From IMG/VR virus record IMGVR_UViG_3300042395_000266, positions 1 to 55,906 of that record: 55,906 nucleotides of DNA; one strand, 5' to 3'. A program made the position numbers and the translations under genes. Of the stretch, positions 21,671 through 35,610 are shown in pieces; the first letter of the stretch is position 1, and each line of letters starts with the position of its first letter. The notes beneath the pieces are model-generated. The model made no database searches and was not told where the DNA came from. It saw only the letters and a program-made list of their open reading frames with translations. This DNA comes from a virus.

Positions 21671-21684
21671 GCAGGACACGTTGT

Positions 21685-21700
21685 CTCGCATGGAGGCGAG
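21685..21700 (+). promoter_or_regulatory. RBS hairpin with ATGGAG hexaloop
   Basis: CTCGC-ATGGAG-GCGAG: a five-bp stem with GGA in a six-base loop, seven bases before the ATG at 21707. GGAGG, the likely Shine-Dalgarno sequence, is shared by loop and stem. It fits a CsrA-repressible leader. Confidence 0.55.
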
Positions 21701-21706
21701 GATGGC

Positions 21707-22006
21707 ATGACTGCCGACGAATTCAAGCAGGGCACAATCGATACGTTTCTCCGTATCGCTGACCGTTTCGGCGTCCCCTGCGTGATCTTGGCAGCGGTTG
21801 TGTATTTCGGCCGCGAGGCCGCCGTTGCGATTCACAGCACGGTCGTTCAGCCGGTCGTGAAAAGCCACGTTGAGTTCCTTGAGACAACGTCAGAAGTGCA
21901 ACAGCAGCAGGCCAGAACGCTTGAGGAACTTGCGACCGGGCAGATCGAAATCAAGGCCGCTCTCACGCGACGGGACGCGGTGACCAACATTGAGGGGAGA
22001 AACTAG
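21707..22006 (+). CDS. Small membrane protein, holin candidate
   Basis: A 99-residue protein with one hydrophobic segment (about residues 22-38, FGVPCVILAAVVYFG), then an amphipathic helix (about 50-80) and a charged end. It could be a holin or a tail-associated membrane protein. Start of a unit under its own promoter and hairpin, followed by fibre genes. Confidence 0.55.
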   Translation: MTADEFKQGTIDTFLRIADRFGVPCVILAAVVYFGREAAVAIHSTVVQPVVKSHVEFLETTSEVQQQQARTLEELATGQIEIKAALTRRDAVTNIEGRN

Positions 22007-28295: not shown

Positions 28296-28324
28296 TTGAC
28301 GGGTAGCCTGCCAACCCCTATCCT
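28296..28324 (+). promoter_or_regulatory. Promoter of the replication genes
   Basis: TTGACG (28296-28301), 17 bases, TATCCT (28319-28324). The spacer holds GGTAGCCTGCC, an inverted copy of the GGCTACC element. A good sigma-70-like promoter 26 bases before the helicase ATG. Confidence 0.6.
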
Positions 28325-28331
28325 CCCCTCC

Positions 28332-28347
28332 CGCTCAAGGAGGAGTG
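28332..28347 (+). promoter_or_regulatory. RBS hairpin with AAGGAG hexaloop
   Basis: CGCTC-AAGGAG-GAGTG, a five-bp stem with one G-T pair and the Shine-Dalgarno sequence as hexaloop, directly before ATG 28350. The loop is identical to those at 11001 and 35400. Confidence 0.55.
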
Positions 28348-28349
28348 CG

Positions 28350-29771
28350 ATGAGTTGGTTGTGGCAGCACCAGCAGGACGCGATCAAATACGCAATGGGG
28401 CGCAGGGACGTTCTGCTCCACTGCGGTATGGGGACGGGGAAAACCCGTGTCGCCCTGGAGGTCGCCCGACTGCTCATTGAGGAGTGCAGGCTGGAAGGGA
28501 AGCCGGCCCGCATCCTCGTGGGCTGCCCCAAGGCGGTGATGCCGGCCTGGGCGAAGCAGGCGGGCCTGTGGCTGCCGGGCGTCAGGGTTCTCGTGCTCGA
28601 CAAGGGCACGGCCCGCGACAAGGAGGCCCGCATCGTGGCGGCCCTCTGCGACACGTCGCCGCTCATCATCGTTGGCAACTACGAGAGCCTGCGGCTGATG
28701 CCGACGCTTGACCGAGTGCCGTGGGCCTGTCTTGTGTGGGACGAGGTTCACCGGCTCAAGAGCGCGACGGGCGCCGCCAGCAAGTGGGCCGCGAAACTCT
28801 GCAAAAGGAACCCGACAGCCAAGCGGATCGGCATGTCTGGCACGCTCCTGGCTCATTCTCCCCTAGACGCGCTGGGGACGTGGCGAGCCGTCGAGTCGCC
28901 GGAGTGCCCGACGTTCGGGTCGCTCGTGACCATGTTCAAGGCGAAATACTTCGCCATCCATCCGCATATCCGCGGCGCCGTCCTGGGCCTGCGGCGCGAC
29001 ATGGAACAGGAGTTTGCCGAGAAGGTCGCCGCCACGACGTTTCTCCGTAAAAGCGAAGACGTGCTCGACCTCCCGCCGCTGATGGTCGAGGACGTGCCCG
29101 TCGAACTTACGCCCGCAGAAGCCTCGCTCTACATGGAGGTGGAGCGAGAATTCTGCGCGGTGTGCGAGGCAGGCACCGTCACGCCGGCCAACGCGATGGT
29201 CGCGGTGCTGCGGCTTCAGCAGATTTGCGGCGGCTACGTCAAGTACGACGAGCAACTGGCGGCCAAGAGGATCGATGAGCGGCCGAGCAAGCAGGCGGCG
29301 CTGGAGGATCGGCTGGCCGACCTCTCCCCCGACGAGCAGGCGGTCGTGTTCTGCCGGTTTCGTTCCGACCTCGACTCAGGCATCGACGCAGCGAAGCGCG
29401 TTGGCCGCAGCGTGAGCGAACTGTCGGGTAGAATGAACGACTTTGCCGAGTGGCAGGCCGGTCGGACGAATCTCCTCGTGGCGCAGATTGCCAGCGGCGG
29501 CGTGGGCGTAGACATGTCGATGTGCGCCTACGGTTTTTTCTATTCGCTGGGCTACAGCCTCGCGGAATACCTCCAGGCCGTAGCGAGGCTGCACCGCCCC
29601 GGCCAGACGAAGACCACGCATTTCTACCACCTAATCGCTACGCTACCGAACGCGCGAAAGACCGTGGATGGTCGTGTCTATGAAGCCCTGTCCCAACGAA
29701 AGGAAGTGATCGATGCAGTCATCGCAGGCTACCGAACCCGAGACAACGGGGTTGCAGGCGTACCTTTCTGA
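28350..29771 (+). CDS. SNF2/DEAD-like helicase
   Basis: A 473-residue superfamily 2 ATPase: HCGMGTGKT (Walker A, about 24-32), VWDEVHR (Walker B), GMSGTLL (motif III), GGVGVDMS (motif V) and QAVARLHRPGQ (motif VI). The SNF2-like motif VI and compact size match phage helicases encoded next to primase-polymerase genes. Likely used in replication or recombination. An in-frame ATG upstream is excluded because AAGGAG precedes 28350. Confidence 0.88.
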   Translation: MSWLWQHQQDAIKYAMGRRDVLLHCGMGTGKTRVALEVARLLIEECRLEGKPARILVGCPKAVMPAWAKQAGLWLPGVRVLVLDKGTARDKEARIVAALCDTSPLIIVGNYESLRLMPTLDRVPWACLVWDEVHRLKSATGAASKWAAKLCKRNPTAKRIGMSGTLLAHSPLDALGTWRAVESPECPTFGSLVTMFKAKYFAIHPHIRGAVLGLRRDMEQEFAEKVAATTFLRKSEDVLDLPPLMVEDVPVELTPAEASLYMEVEREFCAVCEAGTVTPANAMVAVLRLQQICGGYVKYDEQLAAKRIDERPSKQAALEDRLADLSPDEQAVVFCRFRSDLDSGIDAAKRVGRSVSELSGRMNDFAEWQAGRTNLLVAQIASGGVGVDMSMCAYGFFYSLGYSLAEYLQAVARLHRPGQTKTTHFYHLIATLPNARKTVDGRVYEALSQRKEVIDAVIAGYRTRDNGVAGVPF

Positions 29772-30174
29772 AATCGCAGAGATCGACCGCAAGACCCGCG
29801 AACTGGAAGACGAGGCCGACCGCCTGGGGAAGCGCCGCCAGCATCTGGAGCGGCTGGCGGTCGAGGAAATGCTGGAACAGCGGCTCGACGGCGTCCGCGT
29901 GGCAGGCCGCTCGTGGCGCGTCGAATACGACCACTCCATGAGCGTGAGTCAGGAGCGGCGAGATGCCGTGCTCGCGGCCGCCAAGGCCGAGGGCGTGGAG
30001 AAAGAGGTCGCGATGGTCAACACCGCGCGGCTCAAGGCCATCCTCAAGGAAAAGGCCAAGGCCGCCGGCAAGCCCGCGCACGCCGAGCACTCCGCGGGGA
30101 CGGCGTTTGAGGGGCTGGTTGGCGAGTTCGTTCAGCCACGCATCCGGCATGTGACCCTGCCGCGCAAGGACTAG
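29713..30174 (+). CDS. Gp157-like coiled-coil protein
   Basis: A 153-residue protein. Residues 12-55 form a coiled coil (EIAEIDRKTRELEDEADRLGKRRQHLERLAVEEML), followed by a strand (VRVAGRSWRVEYDH) and a helical Lys/Ala-rich end. This order resembles siphovirus Gp157 proteins found in replication modules, but the match is by eye. It overlaps the helicase end by 59 bases. A GGCTACCGAACC element lies inside its first codons. Confidence 0.55.
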   Translation: MQSSQATEPETTGLQAYLSEIAEIDRKTRELEDEADRLGKRRQHLERLAVEEMLEQRLDGVRVAGRSWRVEYDHSMSVSQERRDAVLAAAKAEGVEKEVAMVNTARLKAILKEKAKAAGKPAHAEHSAGTAFEGLVGEFVQPRIRHVTLPRKD

Positions 30175-31227: not shown

Positions 31228-33012
31228 ATGGCATACGAATGGAATCCTGACGTTCTCTTTCGCGCCGCCGCCCTGGCGATCAGCAAGGGCATCCACATCG
31301 CGCGGCTGTACGGCATCACACCAGAGGGTCACTGCACCTGCGCGAACCCCGACCACCGCGTCGGTGGGCCAGCCGAACTCCAGTGCGGCAAGCACCCTCG
31401 CGGCAAGGATTGGGCGAACCGCGCCGCCACCACCGAGGACGAAATCCTGGCGTGGCTGGAGGAGGGTATCCCGTTCAACATCGGCGCCGTGCTGGGGCCG
31501 CGCAGCGGCATCATCGACATGGAGTGGGACGACGAGCGGGCAAAGGCTTACGCCGAGACGCTGGGCCTCTGCGACATAGAAACGCCGACCTACGTCTCCG
31601 GCCGCTCCGAGCACCGCCTGTTCCTGTGGGACGACAGGCTCTCCGAGTGCAAGGCGGTCGTGCATCCCGGCGGCCTGGAGGTTCGCCTGGGCACTGGCGA
31701 GAAAGCCAGCCAGAGCGTGCTGCCGCCGTCTTGGCATTGGTCTGGAATCCAGTACCGCTGGAAGCCGGGTTTTTCGATGGAGGAGTTGCCGTTTGCACCC
31801 CTGCCCGACGTGCTCCTGCGTGCCATCGTCAACGATGCCGACCTGTCTGCCGGCGGCAAGAACGCGGGCGGCGTGTCGTCGCGGGCCGTGCTCCACGGCG
31901 ACGTGGGCAAGGGCAACAGGCATCCGTCGCTGCTCTCCTATGTCACCAGCAAGGTGTTCGCGCACCCCCGGTATCTGCGCGACAGCGTGCAGGCCGACAT
32001 GCTGGTTGAGATCGGCTTGGTCAACCAGCACCGCTGCAAGCCGCCGAAGACCAGCGACGAGGTCAGGGCGATGTTCTACAGCGTGGTCGAGTACCGGCGA
32101 AAAATGGAGGCCCGCAGCGAGGACGTGCCGGAGGACGACGAGGAGATCGCCAAGGTCGCTGCGAAGATTGAGGAACGCGAGAACGAGACGCAGCAAGTGC
32201 CGGTCAGCGGCTACTCGCTCCAGGGGCTGAAGTGGGCGCCGGTCGAGGGCTGGCCGCCGGGCGAGTGGCTCCCCGGAGATTGGTCGATTCAGGTCGTCCA
32301 CGGTGACCCGGCCGAGGTTGTGCTGTGCGTGCCGGCATGGAAGAACACGCCGTGCAAGGGCCGGGTGGCGTTCAACTTCAACGACTTTCGGTCTGCCAAA
32401 CTGGTGGCGGCCAAGGTCTTTGAGGCCACCCGGCGCGTGATCCTCGACGGGGACGGCAAACTCTGGCAAGTCGTGTGGCGAGGCCAGGAAGGCAACAGCA
32501 AGCGGCCGCGGCTGGCGGGGCTGATTGAGAAACTGCTGCTCGCCAAGCAGAAGGAAGACGACATTCACGTCGGGGCGTCGAGCCTGCGGTACGCCACGCT
32601 GGCAGCGTACCTCCTAGAAGCCCTCGCGAGGGCCAAGCCGCCGTCCGAGGAGAAGCCGGAACCAGAGAAGTCAGGGAGGCCCAGGTGGGTCACCAGCCGG
32701 GAGTTGTGGCTGGGATGGGCCAAGACCTGGGAGGAGATCGGCCGGGCGCACGACGTGGCGGCCGGGGAGCGGCTGCGGATCAAGCGGATGCTCTGCGACC
32801 GCCTGGGGGTCAAGGACTTCGTGGAGAAGCGGCACACGTTCGGCGGCCACAAGCAGTCCTACGTCGTGTTCGCGCCCGAGTGGGTCGAGGCCATCCAGCA
32901 TCTGGCCGAGGGCGGCCTGGAGGCGCCGAAGCCCGCGGACGCAATTCCGCCTAATACGGGGATGAGCGAAAAAAATTGTGGCAAAAAAATCTGCCAAACG
33001 ACGCGGCTTTAG
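31228..33012 (+). CDS. Primase-polymerase (PrimPol, AEP superfamily)
   Basis: A 594-residue protein whose first 240 residues carry bifunctional primase/polymerase motifs. There is a Cys/His zinc knuckle (C36, C38, H43, C53, H56). The acidic site GIIDMEWDD (about 94-102) would bind catalytic metals. SGRSEHRLF and the PPSWHWSGIQYRW signature (about 171-183) follow. The middle is unassigned. The C-terminal 90 residues look like a winged-helix domain (ELWLGWAKTWEEIGRAH...RIKRMLCDRLG). It would prime, and perhaps extend, phage DNA; no replicative DNA polymerase was found. Confidence 0.85.
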   Translation: MAYEWNPDVLFRAAALAISKGIHIARLYGITPEGHCTCANPDHRVGGPAELQCGKHPRGKDWANRAATTEDEILAWLEEGIPFNIGAVLGPRSGIIDMEWDDERAKAYAETLGLCDIETPTYVSGRSEHRLFLWDDRLSECKAVVHPGGLEVRLGTGEKASQSVLPPSWHWSGIQYRWKPGFSMEELPFAPLPDVLLRAIVNDADLSAGGKNAGGVSSRAVLHGDVGKGNRHPSLLSYVTSKVFAHPRYLRDSVQADMLVEIGLVNQHRCKPPKTSDEVRAMFYSVVEYRRKMEARSEDVPEDDEEIAKVAAKIEERENETQQVPVSGYSLQGLKWAPVEGWPPGEWLPGDWSIQVVHGDPAEVVLCVPAWKNTPCKGRVAFNFNDFRSAKLVAAKVFEATRRVILDGDGKLWQVVWRGQEGNSKRPRLAGLIEKLLLAKQKEDDIHVGASSLRYATLAAYLLEALARAKPPSEEKPEPEKSGRPRWVTSRELWLGWAKTWEEIGRAHDVAAGERLRIKRMLCDRLGVKDFVEKRHTFGGHKQSYVVFAPEWVEAIQHLAEGGLEAPKPADAIPPNTGMSEKNCGKKICQTTRL

Positions 33013-33189
33013 CGGATTTTGACGTAAGTCGTTGCTGGTAAAGGAGATGCGTTGGACGGGAAAAAATGATTTGGACGGAGAATCGGCGTCCAAGCCTCAT
33101 TTTTTCCACAAGTGAAGCGGTTTTTGTGGACGGAAAAAGTTTTTGACGACTCAAAAACATCAAAAAAGCCCTATTTTGGAGATCAGCAA
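33013..33189. other. AT-rich palindromic region, origin candidate
   Basis: The most AT-rich stretch of the window. An outer palindrome GGAAAAAATGA/TCATTTTTTCC (33059-33069 and 33097-33107) encloses a second, TTGGACG/CGTCCAA (33071-33077 and 33087-33093). Another, TCCACAA/TTGTGGA, follows. TGGACGG occurs four times. It lies between primase-polymerase and helicase, a common place for a phage origin. Confidence 0.55.
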
Positions 33190-34875
33190 ATGGACGGCGT
33201 GAAGGTGCTTCGGGCGATTGGCGGCGCGGGGACGGGAAAAACGCGGCTGATGATATCGACCGCCGAGAAGGCGTTGGCCCGACCCGAGGTGGGCGGCAAC
33301 CCGTTCGCCATCGGGTTCTCCAGTTTCACCCGCGCGGCCAGGGCCGAGGCCGCCGGCCGAGCCGCCCAGGCGTGGGGCATGGCCCAAGCCGAACTGGAGC
33401 GCGACGGGTGGTTCAGGACGTGCCACAGCGTGGCCTACCGGCAGTTGGGCGTCAGCAAGGGGGAAGTGCTTGGCGGCAGCAAGGCCGACGACAAATGGGT
33501 GTCTGAAGCCTTGGGGAGCGACGTGGCGTATTCGGTGGAGGAGGACGGCGGATACGCGGTCTACACGGGCGACCCGGTGGCGGCGGCGGCGCTGAACTAC
33601 TGGTCGCTGGCCCGGTCGATGGTCGTGCCCCTGCGGGAGATCGCGGAATCTGCCTACGAGTGGGAGGACGACGCTCCGTCCGCGGAGGAGGTGATCCGCC
33701 GCATTGAGATGTACGAGACGGCCAAGCGGCTCGACGGCCGCGTGGACTTCACCGACCTCCTCTGCCGGTTCGTTGGCGTGAGCAACGACCCGGCCGGCGG
33801 CCCCGACTTCGTCGCCCCCGAAGGGAAGGTGCCGGATGGGGTCGTGGGCTGGATTTTTGACGAGGCCCAGGACGCATCAAAACTCCTCGACATGGCCTGC
33901 CGGCGGCTCGTGTCTGGCGACTCGTGCAAGTGGGCGTGGATCGTAGGCGACCCGTTTCAAGTGCTCTACTCGTGGGCGGGGGCGTCGAGCGAGTTCTTCA
34001 TGGGCTGGCCGGTCGTCAGGCAGGAAATCATGCCCAAGTCTTACCGCTGCGCGGCCCCCATCCTCCAGTTGGGCGAGGATTGCCTTCAGCGACTCCACAA
34101 AGGCTACTGGAACAGAGGAATCGCGGCGGCCGACCATGACGGCGAGGTGGTCGAGAGCGGCAACTACGAAGACGATTTGAGCGACCTCACGCCCGACCGG
34201 GAGACGCTCGTGATTGCCAGGACGAACCGCAACGTCGGCAGGATCGCCAGCATCTTGGAGGACTGCGGCGTTCCGTACCGCCGGATCAAGGCCAAGGACG
34301 GCGCCCACAACGCCGACATCGGCATGGCGGGGCTGTGGAAGTTAGAGCACGGGCAGCACGCCACCCGCGAGGAGTGGACGCAGGCCATCGACCTCCTGCC
34401 GAGTCAGACGATCCGCCGCGAGGCCGGCGTCGAGCACAAGGAGACGCTGCTGGCCCGCGGGTCGAAGGCCCAGTGGAGTCGAGGGCTGGCCGAGCGGCAC
34501 GACATTCTGTTCCCCGAGGACTTGGCCGGCGTCGGCGCGACCGAGCACCTCCGCGGCATGATCGCGGACGGCCGCTGGTGCGAACTGGTGGACGGCGGCA
34601 TCAAGTGGCACCGGGCGGCCAAGAAGTTCGGCCTGGAGGTCGTCGCCAGCCCGAAGATTCGCATCGGCACGATCCACGCGGCCAAGGGCATGGAGGCAGA
34701 CAACGTGATCGTGCTTTCCAGCGTCGGCCGCCGCATCCGCGACGGGGAGGAGCGGAGCGATGAGCGGCACGACGAGGAGCGGCGGATCGAATACGTCGCC
34801 GTTACCAGGGCCAGGAAGCGGCTGGTGGTCGCGCACGACCCCCGCGAGAAGTACCGAATGGAATTGCCCCTCTGA
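33190..34875 (+). CDS. UvrD/Rep-like superfamily 1 helicase
   Basis: A 561-residue helicase: GGAGTGKTRLM (Walker A, about 11-21), FDEAQDASKLL (motif II), WIVGDPFQVLYSWAGAS (motif III), IGTIHAAKGMEADNVIVLS (motif V) and VAVTRARKRLVV (motif VI). It unwinds DNA 3'-5' in this family. ATG 33190 is preferred because GGAGAT lies eight bases upstream and Walker A then has normal spacing; GTG 33112 would start inside the palindromic region. Confidence 0.9.
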   Translation: MDGVKVLRAIGGAGTGKTRLMISTAEKALARPEVGGNPFAIGFSSFTRAARAEAAGRAAQAWGMAQAELERDGWFRTCHSVAYRQLGVSKGEVLGGSKADDKWVSEALGSDVAYSVEEDGGYAVYTGDPVAAAALNYWSLARSMVVPLREIAESAYEWEDDAPSAEEVIRRIEMYETAKRLDGRVDFTDLLCRFVGVSNDPAGGPDFVAPEGKVPDGVVGWIFDEAQDASKLLDMACRRLVSGDSCKWAWIVGDPFQVLYSWAGASSEFFMGWPVVRQEIMPKSYRCAAPILQLGEDCLQRLHKGYWNRGIAAADHDGEVVESGNYEDDLSDLTPDRETLVIARTNRNVGRIASILEDCGVPYRRIKAKDGAHNADIGMAGLWKLEHGQHATREEWTQAIDLLPSQTIRREAGVEHKETLLARGSKAQWSRGLAERHDILFPEDLAGVGATEHLRGMIADGRWCELVDGGIKWHRAAKKFGLEVVASPKIRIGTIHAAKGMEADNVIVLSSVGRRIRDGEERSDERHDEERRIEYVAVTRARKRLVVAHDPREKYRMELPL

Positions 34876-34909: not shown

Positions 34910-35380
34910 ATGCTGTTTGATATTTCGCCCGACGAGCCGCAGCCGAAGAAGAAGGGTGGAAAGTCCCGCGCGCGCGCAAAGGCCGCACCCCCTCCAGCCG
35001 AAGTCGTCGCACCCGTTTTGGCCCCTTATTTTATAGGGGAAAGGCCCATCCCGGCCCTTGGCACCATCGATGGCGAGTACGTCTGCGCTGACGACTCGTG
35101 CGCGGCCGGCTCGCAAGACATTCTCGCGGAGTTCGACGGCGAGTGGACGGTCGAGTGTGCGCTGTGCGGCACCCGGCAGCGAGTCGCCGCCATCCAAGAC
35201 CACCTCAAGCCCAAGGGGGACGTGTTCGTTGTGTCCGACGGCCGGTTCGCCGGCATGACGTTGGACGAGATTAGCAGGCAGCCGCGAGGGCCGGAGTGGC
35301 TGGCCTGGGCCGTCGCGGAGCACCCCCGGCAGTTCGTCAGAGAGGCCGTCCAGAAACACGCATTGACCGTCGCCAGATAG
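34910..35380 (+). CDS. Zinc-ribbon protein with ExoX-like C-terminus
   Basis: A 156-residue protein. Residues 1-45 are Lys/Arg/Ala/Pro-rich. Residues 60-95 contain C-x5-C and C-x2-C pairs (VCADDSCAAG; VECALCGTRQR), a possible zinc ribbon. The C-terminal part (GRFAGMTLDEISRQPRGPEWLAWAVAEH) resembles the small domain found after ExoX-like exonucleases. Preceded by CAGGCTACC and AAGGAG. Confidence 0.6.
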   Translation: MLFDISPDEPQPKKKGGKSRARAKAAPPPAEVVAPVLAPYFIGERPIPALGTIDGEYVCADDSCAAGSQDILAEFDGEWTVECALCGTRQRVAAIQDHLKPKGDVFVVSDGRFAGMTLDEISRQPRGPEWLAWAVAEHPRQFVREAVQKHALTVAR

Positions 35381-35391
35381 CCCGTTAGGCT
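35363..35391 (+). promoter_or_regulatory. csrA promoter candidate
   Basis: TTGACC (35363-35368), 17 bases, TAGGCT (35386-35391), the latter being part of TAGGCTACCC. An inverted TAGCC lies five bases upstream, giving TAGCC-CGTTA-GGCTA. Confidence 0.55.
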
Positions 35392-35399
35392 ACCCACCA

Positions 35400-35415
35400 C
35401 GCAAAAGGAGTTGCG
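35400..35415 (+). promoter_or_regulatory. csrA RBS hairpin, AAGGAG hexaloop
   Basis: CGCAA-AAGGAG-TTGCG: a five-bp stem whose six-base loop is the Shine-Dalgarno sequence of csrA. CsrA binding here would block its own translation. Confidence 0.65.
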
Positions 35416-35418
35416 ACC

Positions 35419-35610
35419 ATGCTCGTCATCACACGAAAAGCCGGTCAAAGGATTTGGATCGGGAACGACGTGGAGGTCACGGTCGGCCGTGTCCTGCCCG
35501 ACGGCCGCGTGCGGCTGTGCATTACCGCACCCAAGCACGTCACGGTCGTCCGCGACGAACTGCTGACCCGAGCCGACGCGGCAGCGCGGGAGGAGAGGGT
35601 CGCCCGATGA
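35419..35610 (+). CDS. csrA: CsrA/RsmA translational regulator
   Basis: RNA-binding dimer that recognises GGA in hairpin loops and blocks or stabilises mRNAs. The 63 residues fit the family along their length: MLVITRKAGQRIWIG, VEVTVGRV, VRLCITAPKHVTVVRDEL, including the RNA-contacting N-terminal Leu2-Thr5-Arg6-type residues and the conserved Arg in VVRDE. Phage-borne csrA genes are uncommon. Its leader has its own candidate site, implying autoregulation. It heads a set of small genes overlapping by ATGA. Confidence 0.92.
   Translation: MLVITRKAGQRIWIGNDVEVTVGRVLPDGRVRLCITAPKHVTVVRDELLTRADAAAREERVAR

What the first reader, a model, noticed from the sequence alone, without database searches (positions are those of the whole stretch)
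35400..35610. Phage-encoded CsrA with a probable autoregulatory hairpin
A complete csrA (63 residues) is preceded by CGCAA-AAGGAG-TTGCG, in which its own Shine-Dalgarno sequence is the hexaloop. CsrA is known to bind GGA in hexaloops and to repress by covering the ribosome site. The phage thus seems to carry its own post-transcriptional regulator.
Basis: partly seen in the sequence, partly recalled or inferred. Interest (0 to 1): 0.82.

Follow-up and report, generated by a model that had tools for sequence, protein, structure and literature searches.

The report
Phage CsrA gene with self-regulating hairpin
A group of uncultivated, mostly environmental phages carries its own copy of the bacterial translation regulator CsrA, and the start of that gene's message is a tiny hairpin, kept by evolution through many paired base changes, that shows the ribosome site in exactly the shape CsrA prefers to bind, so the protein most likely shuts off its own production.

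Summary
csrA (35419-35610, 63 aa) matches Pfam CsrA (E 5.8e-17), and its model matches solved RsmA/CsrA structures. The 5-bp stem at 35400-35415 holds the Shine-Dalgarno AAGGAG as a hexaloop, the published high-affinity ANGGAX form. In this one sequence the hairpin is not thermodynamically unusual. csrA lies downstream of the UvrD-like helicase in all 52 related viral loci with at least 40% helicase identity and enough sequence. In 29 of 30 distinct csrA leaders GGA sits in a predicted hairpin loop (44% in other genes). The stem covaries strongly (score 0.59; shuffles 0.19; slid versions at most 0.22) and has been rebuilt into about ten different sequences. A TTGnnn-N17-TA(G/A)GCT promoter precedes most leaders, so the hairpin probably forms the very 5' end of the mRNA. 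Ten csrA leaders of other phages and 12 bacterial csrA leaders lack the hairpin. The primase-polymerase leaders of the same group show a weaker covarying version, hinting at a small phage regulon. Phage csrA genes are already known; what appears new is this conserved, minimal autoregulatory leader in a whole phage lineage. Binding is untested and the host is unknown.

The parts
35363..35368 (+). probable -35 box TTGACC of the csrA promoter
   Evidence: TTGnnn (or TGG) lies exactly 17 nt before the -10-like TA(G/A)GCT in every relative with the motif
35386..35391 (+). probable -10 box TAGGCT, followed by conserved AC
   Evidence: motif found in 33 of 41 distinct upstream regions; transcription start about 35398-35400 is inferred, not shown
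35400..35415 (+). covarying RNA hairpin CGCAA-AAGGAG-TTGCG, probable CsrA site and ribosome site in one
35405..35410 (+). hexaloop AAGGAG = Shine-Dalgarno = ANGGAX CsrA consensus (GGA at 35407-35409)
   Evidence: consensus from PMC4005645
35419..35610 (+). csrA, 63 aa, CsrA/RsmA family
   Evidence: PF02599 5.8e-17, phrog_9500 CsrA-like regulator 2.3e-15, PDB CsrA/RsmE/RsmA by sequence and by fold
34910..35380 (+). 156-aa gene of unknown function between helicase and csrA, with a CAGGCTAC motif but no SD hairpin
33112..34875 (+). UvrD-like helicase, syntenic marker used to find relatives
   Evidence: PF00580 3.8e-16; 57 related viral loci
31228..33012 (+). Prim-Pol primase-polymerase; leaders of its relatives show a weaker covarying GGA hexaloop, the window copy has only 2 pairs
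   Evidence: PF09250 5e-14
28332..28347 (+). possible second CsrA hairpin CGCTC-AAGGAG-GAGTG (one G-U) before the SNF2-like helicase gene at 28350, behind TTGACG-N17-TATCCT (28296-28324)
   Evidence: family signal weak

Best explanation
The phage makes its own CsrA dimer from a dedicated sigma-70-type promoter. The mRNA begins with, or within a few bases of, a 16-nt hairpin whose loop is both the Shine-Dalgarno sequence and an ANGGAX CsrA site. While CsrA is scarce the exposed loop lets ribosomes start; when CsrA accumulates it occupies the loop and blocks the 30S subunit, capping its own level (negative autoregulation). Free CsrA then acts on other mRNAs: host messages, and probably a few phage replication messages in some members. 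Shown here: gene identity, synteny, conserved promoter spacing, hairpin covariation, loop consensus. Inferred: binding, repression, transcription start, downstream targets.
For: CsrA family membership, with the family's RNA-contact arginines R6 and R44 (R45 here) invariant across 13 phage CsrAs. Stem covariation: 77% of cells paired, 43 cells changed on both sides, all five pairs with double changes, score 0.590 against 0.189 +/- 0.034 shuffled (0/500) and at most 0.222 slid. csrA ranks first (z 10.1) of 17 gene families in the same loci under one identical test. 29/30 distinct leaders have GGA in an MFE hairpin loop, against 250/567 controls; A at loop position 1 in 27/30 against 221/567. Eleven stem types need at least 10 changes, 20 on the helicase tree. 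Exact 17-nt promoter spacing, and a -10-to-GGA distance of 15 or 18-22 nt. Published: ANGGAX hexaloop on a stem is the high-affinity site (PMC4005645); E. coli CsrA represses its own translation through four leader sites, one over the SD (PMC7652899).
Against: No binding or expression data. The leader of this window alone folds no better than shuffles. One relative (L034) has lost the hairpin and a few have 3-bp, 7-nt-loop, 4-nt-loop or bulged versions. There is only one leader site and no conserved second GGA within the first 75 nt of the gene, so the two-site bridging seen in E. coli glgC is not evident. On the sequence alone the site could equally be read by a host CsrA.
Confidence: 0.77

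Rival explanations
1. The hairpin is a CsrA site, but the intended reader is the host's CsrA, so that phage csrA is switched by host physiology rather than mainly by itself.
For: CsrA proteins share one RNA consensus; published work reports that csrA-bearing phages tend to infect csrA-bearing hosts (PMC8450108).
Against: The host is unknown here; the hairpin and the gene always occur together in this group, while csrA genes of sampled phages of Pseudomonas, Vibrio and Xanthomonas lack it.
Confidence: 0.25
2. The stem only presents the ribosome site or protects the 5' end of an mRNA with a very short leader; CsrA does not read it.
For: The hairpin lies at the predicted 5' end, where stabilising stems are common (general knowledge).
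Against: The loop is mostly held at six bases with A first and a variable second base, the CsrA rule rather than the ribosome's; the neighbouring gene 34910 with a similar promoter-like motif lacks it.
Confidence: 0.15
3. Chance: SD-rich leaders often form weak hairpins, and relatedness inflates the covariation.
For: 44% of control ribosome sites also lie in some predicted loop; the single leader has z 0.39; shuffles do not correct for relatedness.
Against: Sixteen other gene families from the same loci give z from -1.7 to 6.4 against 10.1 for csrA; a similar-looking hairpin at 21707 is not conserved in its relatives, showing that the test can fail.
Confidence: 0.03

Closest known systems
E. 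coli csrA translational autoregulation (Yakhnin et al. 2011, as reviewed in PMC7652899)
   Same: CsrA represses its own translation through a leader site that overlaps the Shine-Dalgarno sequence
   Different: E. coli uses four leader sites; here one compact, apparently 5'-terminal hexaloop does both jobs, in a phage, and it covaries across the lineage
RsmE bound to the hcnA Shine-Dalgarno sequence (PDB 2jpp) and RsmZ ANGGAX loops (PMC4005645)
   Same: ANGGAX hexaloop on a stem; the Shine-Dalgarno sequence lies within the recognised element
   Different: there the regulated gene is a metabolic target, or the RNA is a sponge; here it is the regulator's own gene
Phage-encoded CsrA/RsmA (Pseudomonas F116 and AUS531phi, Vibrio phages, Burkholderia Bcep22-like JC1; PMC7366521, PMC8450108, PMC9144972)
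   Same: a csrA gene carried by a phage
   Different: the sampled known phage csrA leaders have no SD hexaloop stem (0-1 pair; JC1 itself not fetched); those are described as scattered or moron genes, whereas here csrA is a syntenic gene in every evaluable member
Plasmid RsmQ of pQBR103 (PMC9928087) and Legionella ICE CsrT
   Same: CsrA homologue on a mobile element
   Different: their own leader regulation was not described in the passages read

Membership tests
CsrA/RsmA protein family (PF02599) | profile match over the family cut-off | tested here: met
   61.8 bits against a cut-off of 27, positions 1-50 of 53
CsrA/RsmA protein family (PF02599) | conserved RNA-contact residues (R6 and R44 in E. 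coli numbering; named from memory) | tested here: met
   R6 and R45 invariant in 13 phage CsrAs; position 7 is K in the window and R or K in the others
CsrA/RsmA protein family (PF02599) | CsrA fold | tested here: met
   monomer model pLDDT 84.6; the top ten PDB hits are all RsmA/CsrA/RsmE, the first eight with TM 0.66-0.70
CsrA/RsmA protein family (PF02599) | intertwined homodimer that binds two GGA sites | not testable with these tools
   only a single chain was modelled
High-affinity CsrA target (ANGGAX hexaloop on a stem) | six-base loop ANGGAX directly on a stem | tested here: met
   AAGGAG on five pairs in the window; hexaloop in 20 of 30 distinct leaders by MFE
CsrA autoregulatory leader | site overlaps the ribosome site of csrA itself | tested here: met
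   GGA 9 nt before the ATG
CsrA autoregulatory leader | site maintained by selection | tested here: met
   covariation score 0.590, 0/500 shuffles, slid versions at most 0.222
CsrA autoregulatory leader | CsrA binds and represses | not testable with these tools
   needs gel shift and reporter
CsrB/RsmZ sponge RNA | Rfam match in the same genome | tested here: not met
   no Rfam family at gathering threshold in the window

The most novel reading that the evidence does not exclude
The phage CsrA is a lineage-wide translational clock for the phage's own genes: besides capping itself, it represses or times the replication module (Prim-Pol and helicases) through ANGGAX hairpins over their ribosome sites, a phage-internal Csr regulon rather than only a tool against the host.
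Probability: 0.3. Interest if true: 0.72.

Novelty: new variant of a known kind. Interest (0 to 1): 0.55.

Why it matters
Phage csrA genes are usually listed as accessory genes without a circuit. Here a whole uncultivated phage lineage keeps csrA as a syntenic gene, mostly with its own promoter, and a minimal leader in which one 16-nt hairpin is both ribosome site and regulator site. That makes phage CsrA function directly testable, offers a natural set of stem variants for CsrA-RNA specificity, and gives a search signature (covarying ANGGAX over the Shine-Dalgarno sequence) to find further phage targets.

Tried and rejected
(1) Other hairpins of the same form in the window: 21707 (stem TCTCGC/GCGAGG) is not conserved in its relatives and is rejected as a conserved site. 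11018 had only three near-identical relatives, so it is undecided. 42774 and 38105 were not followed. (2) A second bridging GGA inside csrA: no conserved position. (3) A CsrB-like sponge: no Rfam hit. (4) Host by CsrA similarity: best bacterial matches 42-55% identity spread over Oscillospiraceae, Acidobacteria, Verrucomicrobia and Planctomycetes, so undecided. (5) A database of isolate phages: no nucleotide-level relative apart from a 45-nt methylase match, helicase relatives at 24-28% identity. (6) The generic promoter scan missed the csrA promoter because its -10 is TAGGCT; the comparative spacing test found it. (7) A genome scan with the CsrA alignment failed for lack of conserved stretches.

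Full report
Observation. The hairpin is in the sequence as stated: 35400-35415, CGCAA-AAGGAG-TTGCG, with the ATG of a 63-aa ORF at 35419. The ORF is a CsrA protein by Pfam, PHROGs, PDB sequence and predicted fold. The window is a tailed-phage contig of about 64% GC with portal, prohead protease, terminase and major head protein. On its own the leader folds no better than shuffles (z 0.39), so a single sequence could not settle the matter.

Related phages. A scan of IMG/VR with the neighbouring UvrD-like helicase gave 57 loci. A CsrA profile found csrA downstream of the helicase in 52 of them (L028 recovered). The five without it are two contigs that end too early (L027, L052) and three distant helicases at 23-36% identity, whose whole contigs also lack csrA. 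csrA is therefore kept in all 52 evaluable loci with at least 40% helicase identity. No isolate phage in the GenBank set is a close relative.

The hairpin is conserved by covariation. Thirty distinct csrA leaders were aligned on the GGA. In 29, GGA lies in the loop of the predicted hairpin; among 567 distinct control ribosome sites from conserved genes in the same loci, 250 (44%) do. Hexaloop stems of at least 4 WC pairs occur in 18/29 csrA leaders against 21/1158 other sites. On 29 distinct leaders, 77% of pair cells are standard, 43 cells are changed on both sides, every pair shows double changes, and the covariation score is 0.590 against 0.189 +/- 0.034 in shuffles and at most 0.222 for slid partners. 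Stems include CGCAA/TTGCG, GCTGA/TCAGC, ACGG/CCGT, AGTGA/TCACT, AGCAA/TTGCT, TCCGA/TCGGA, GAGG/CCTC and GCGA/TCGC. On the helicase tree 20 changes of stem type are needed (a quick tree, stem types assigned by eye); some of these reflect csrA with its leader moving together, as L031 and L055 share leader and nearly the same csrA but have distant helicases. Because shuffles do not correct for relatedness, the same test was run on 17 gene families of the same loci: csrA is first (z 10.1), Prim-Pol second (6.4), UvrD third (4.0), and the rest range from -1.7 to 3.6.

The loop follows the CsrA rule. A is at loop position 1 in 27/30 leaders (controls 221/567), while position 2 can be A, T or C. Duss et al. 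2014 define the high-affinity site as an ANGGAX hexaloop directly on a stem (PMC4005645), and the review PMC7652899 reports that most SELEX winners had six-base loops.

Promoter and 5' end. Where the TA(G/A)GCT-like motif is present, a TTGnnn or TGG hexamer lies exactly 17 nt upstream (in the window TTGACC 35363-35368 and TAGGCT 35386-35391), and the distance from the -10 to GGA is 15 or 18-22 nt. A start 6-8 nt after the -10 would put the hairpin at or near the first bases of the mRNA. This is inference: no transcript data were available. Eight of 41 distinct upstream regions lack the motif, several of them because an extra 53-aa gene with its own motif lies in front.

Mechanism. Most likely negative translational autoregulation: low CsrA leaves the loop free for ribosomes; accumulating CsrA covers it. 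Only one site is present and no second GGA is conserved in the first 75 nt of the gene, so a single-site blockade (or a dimer bridging to another RNA) is more likely than the two-site bridging of E. coli glgC. Rival: a host CsrA reads the same site; sequence cannot exclude this.

Wider targets. Prim-Pol leaders show a covarying hexaloop in part of the group (score 0.473 against 0.191 shuffled and at most 0.213 slid), but the window's Prim-Pol leader has only two pairs. The SNF2-like helicase gene at 28350 has a promoter of the same spacing and a 5-pair hexaloop with one G-U; its family signal is weak because an extended Shine-Dalgarno sequence pairs easily with CTC. A 53-aa gene just upstream of csrA in one clade (for example L006:8292, L044:8176, L014:3947) has its own hairpin with GACA/TGTC or GGCG/CGCC stems. 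A look-alike hairpin at 21707 failed the conservation test. The regulon idea is therefore a lead, not a result.

Comparison with known cases. Phage csrA is known (30 of 2517 phage genomes in PMC7366521; GenBank and IMG/VR in PMC8450108; JC1 in PMC9144972). E. coli csrA autoregulation is known (PMC7652899). Ten csrA leaders from named or fecal phages (Pseudomonas, Vibrio, Xanthomonas and two fecal phages) and twelve bacterial csrA leaders have no SD hexaloop stem beyond 1 pair. The searches made here found no report of a conserved autoregulatory csrA leader in phages; this covers open-access text only. Verdict: a new variant of a known kind.

Noticed in passing
window, 45 places, e.g. 5544, 19054, 35386, 42724: TAGGCTAC with up to one mismatch occurs 45 times where 10.5 are expected; before csrA it is the probable -10 box, elsewhere it may mark other phage promoters.
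   Followed up: partly
window 28296-28347: SNF2-like helicase gene: TTGACG-N17-TATCCT promoter and SD hexaloop; relatives also carry CCTCC before the GGAGG ribosome site, which could form an SD-hiding stem exclusive with the hexaloop.
   Followed up: partly
L006:8292, L044:8176, L054:8141, L014:3947, L047:4857: 53-aa gene (SLKENLGHRGG...) of unknown function directly before csrA in one clade, with its own GGA hexaloop whose stem switches between GACA/TGTC and GGCG/CGCC.
   Followed up: partly
window 31228 and relatives: Prim-Pol leaders show the second strongest SD-hexaloop covariation (z 6.4), e.g. TCGAA-ATGGAG-TTCGA in L054 and CTAA-ACGGAG-TTAG in L019; the window copy lacks the stem.
   Followed up: partly
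window 21680-21702: Hairpin with ATGGAG loop before a 99-aa small gene (21707); not conserved in its relatives.
   Followed up: yes
window 11018 and 42774: Further ANGGA hexaloop stems before a 111-aa gene (possibly a tail protein, by eye only) and a 53-aa ORF; too few relatives found or not examined.
   Followed up: no
L031 and L055: Nearly the same csrA and leader but distant helicases: csrA with its leader seems to recombine between phages as one unit.
   Followed up: partly
window 29713-30174: 153-aa gene matches DUF7307, Pam3 gp33-like protein, named after a cyanophage; together with a distant Pseudanabaena phage helicase match this is a weak host hint only.
   Followed up: no
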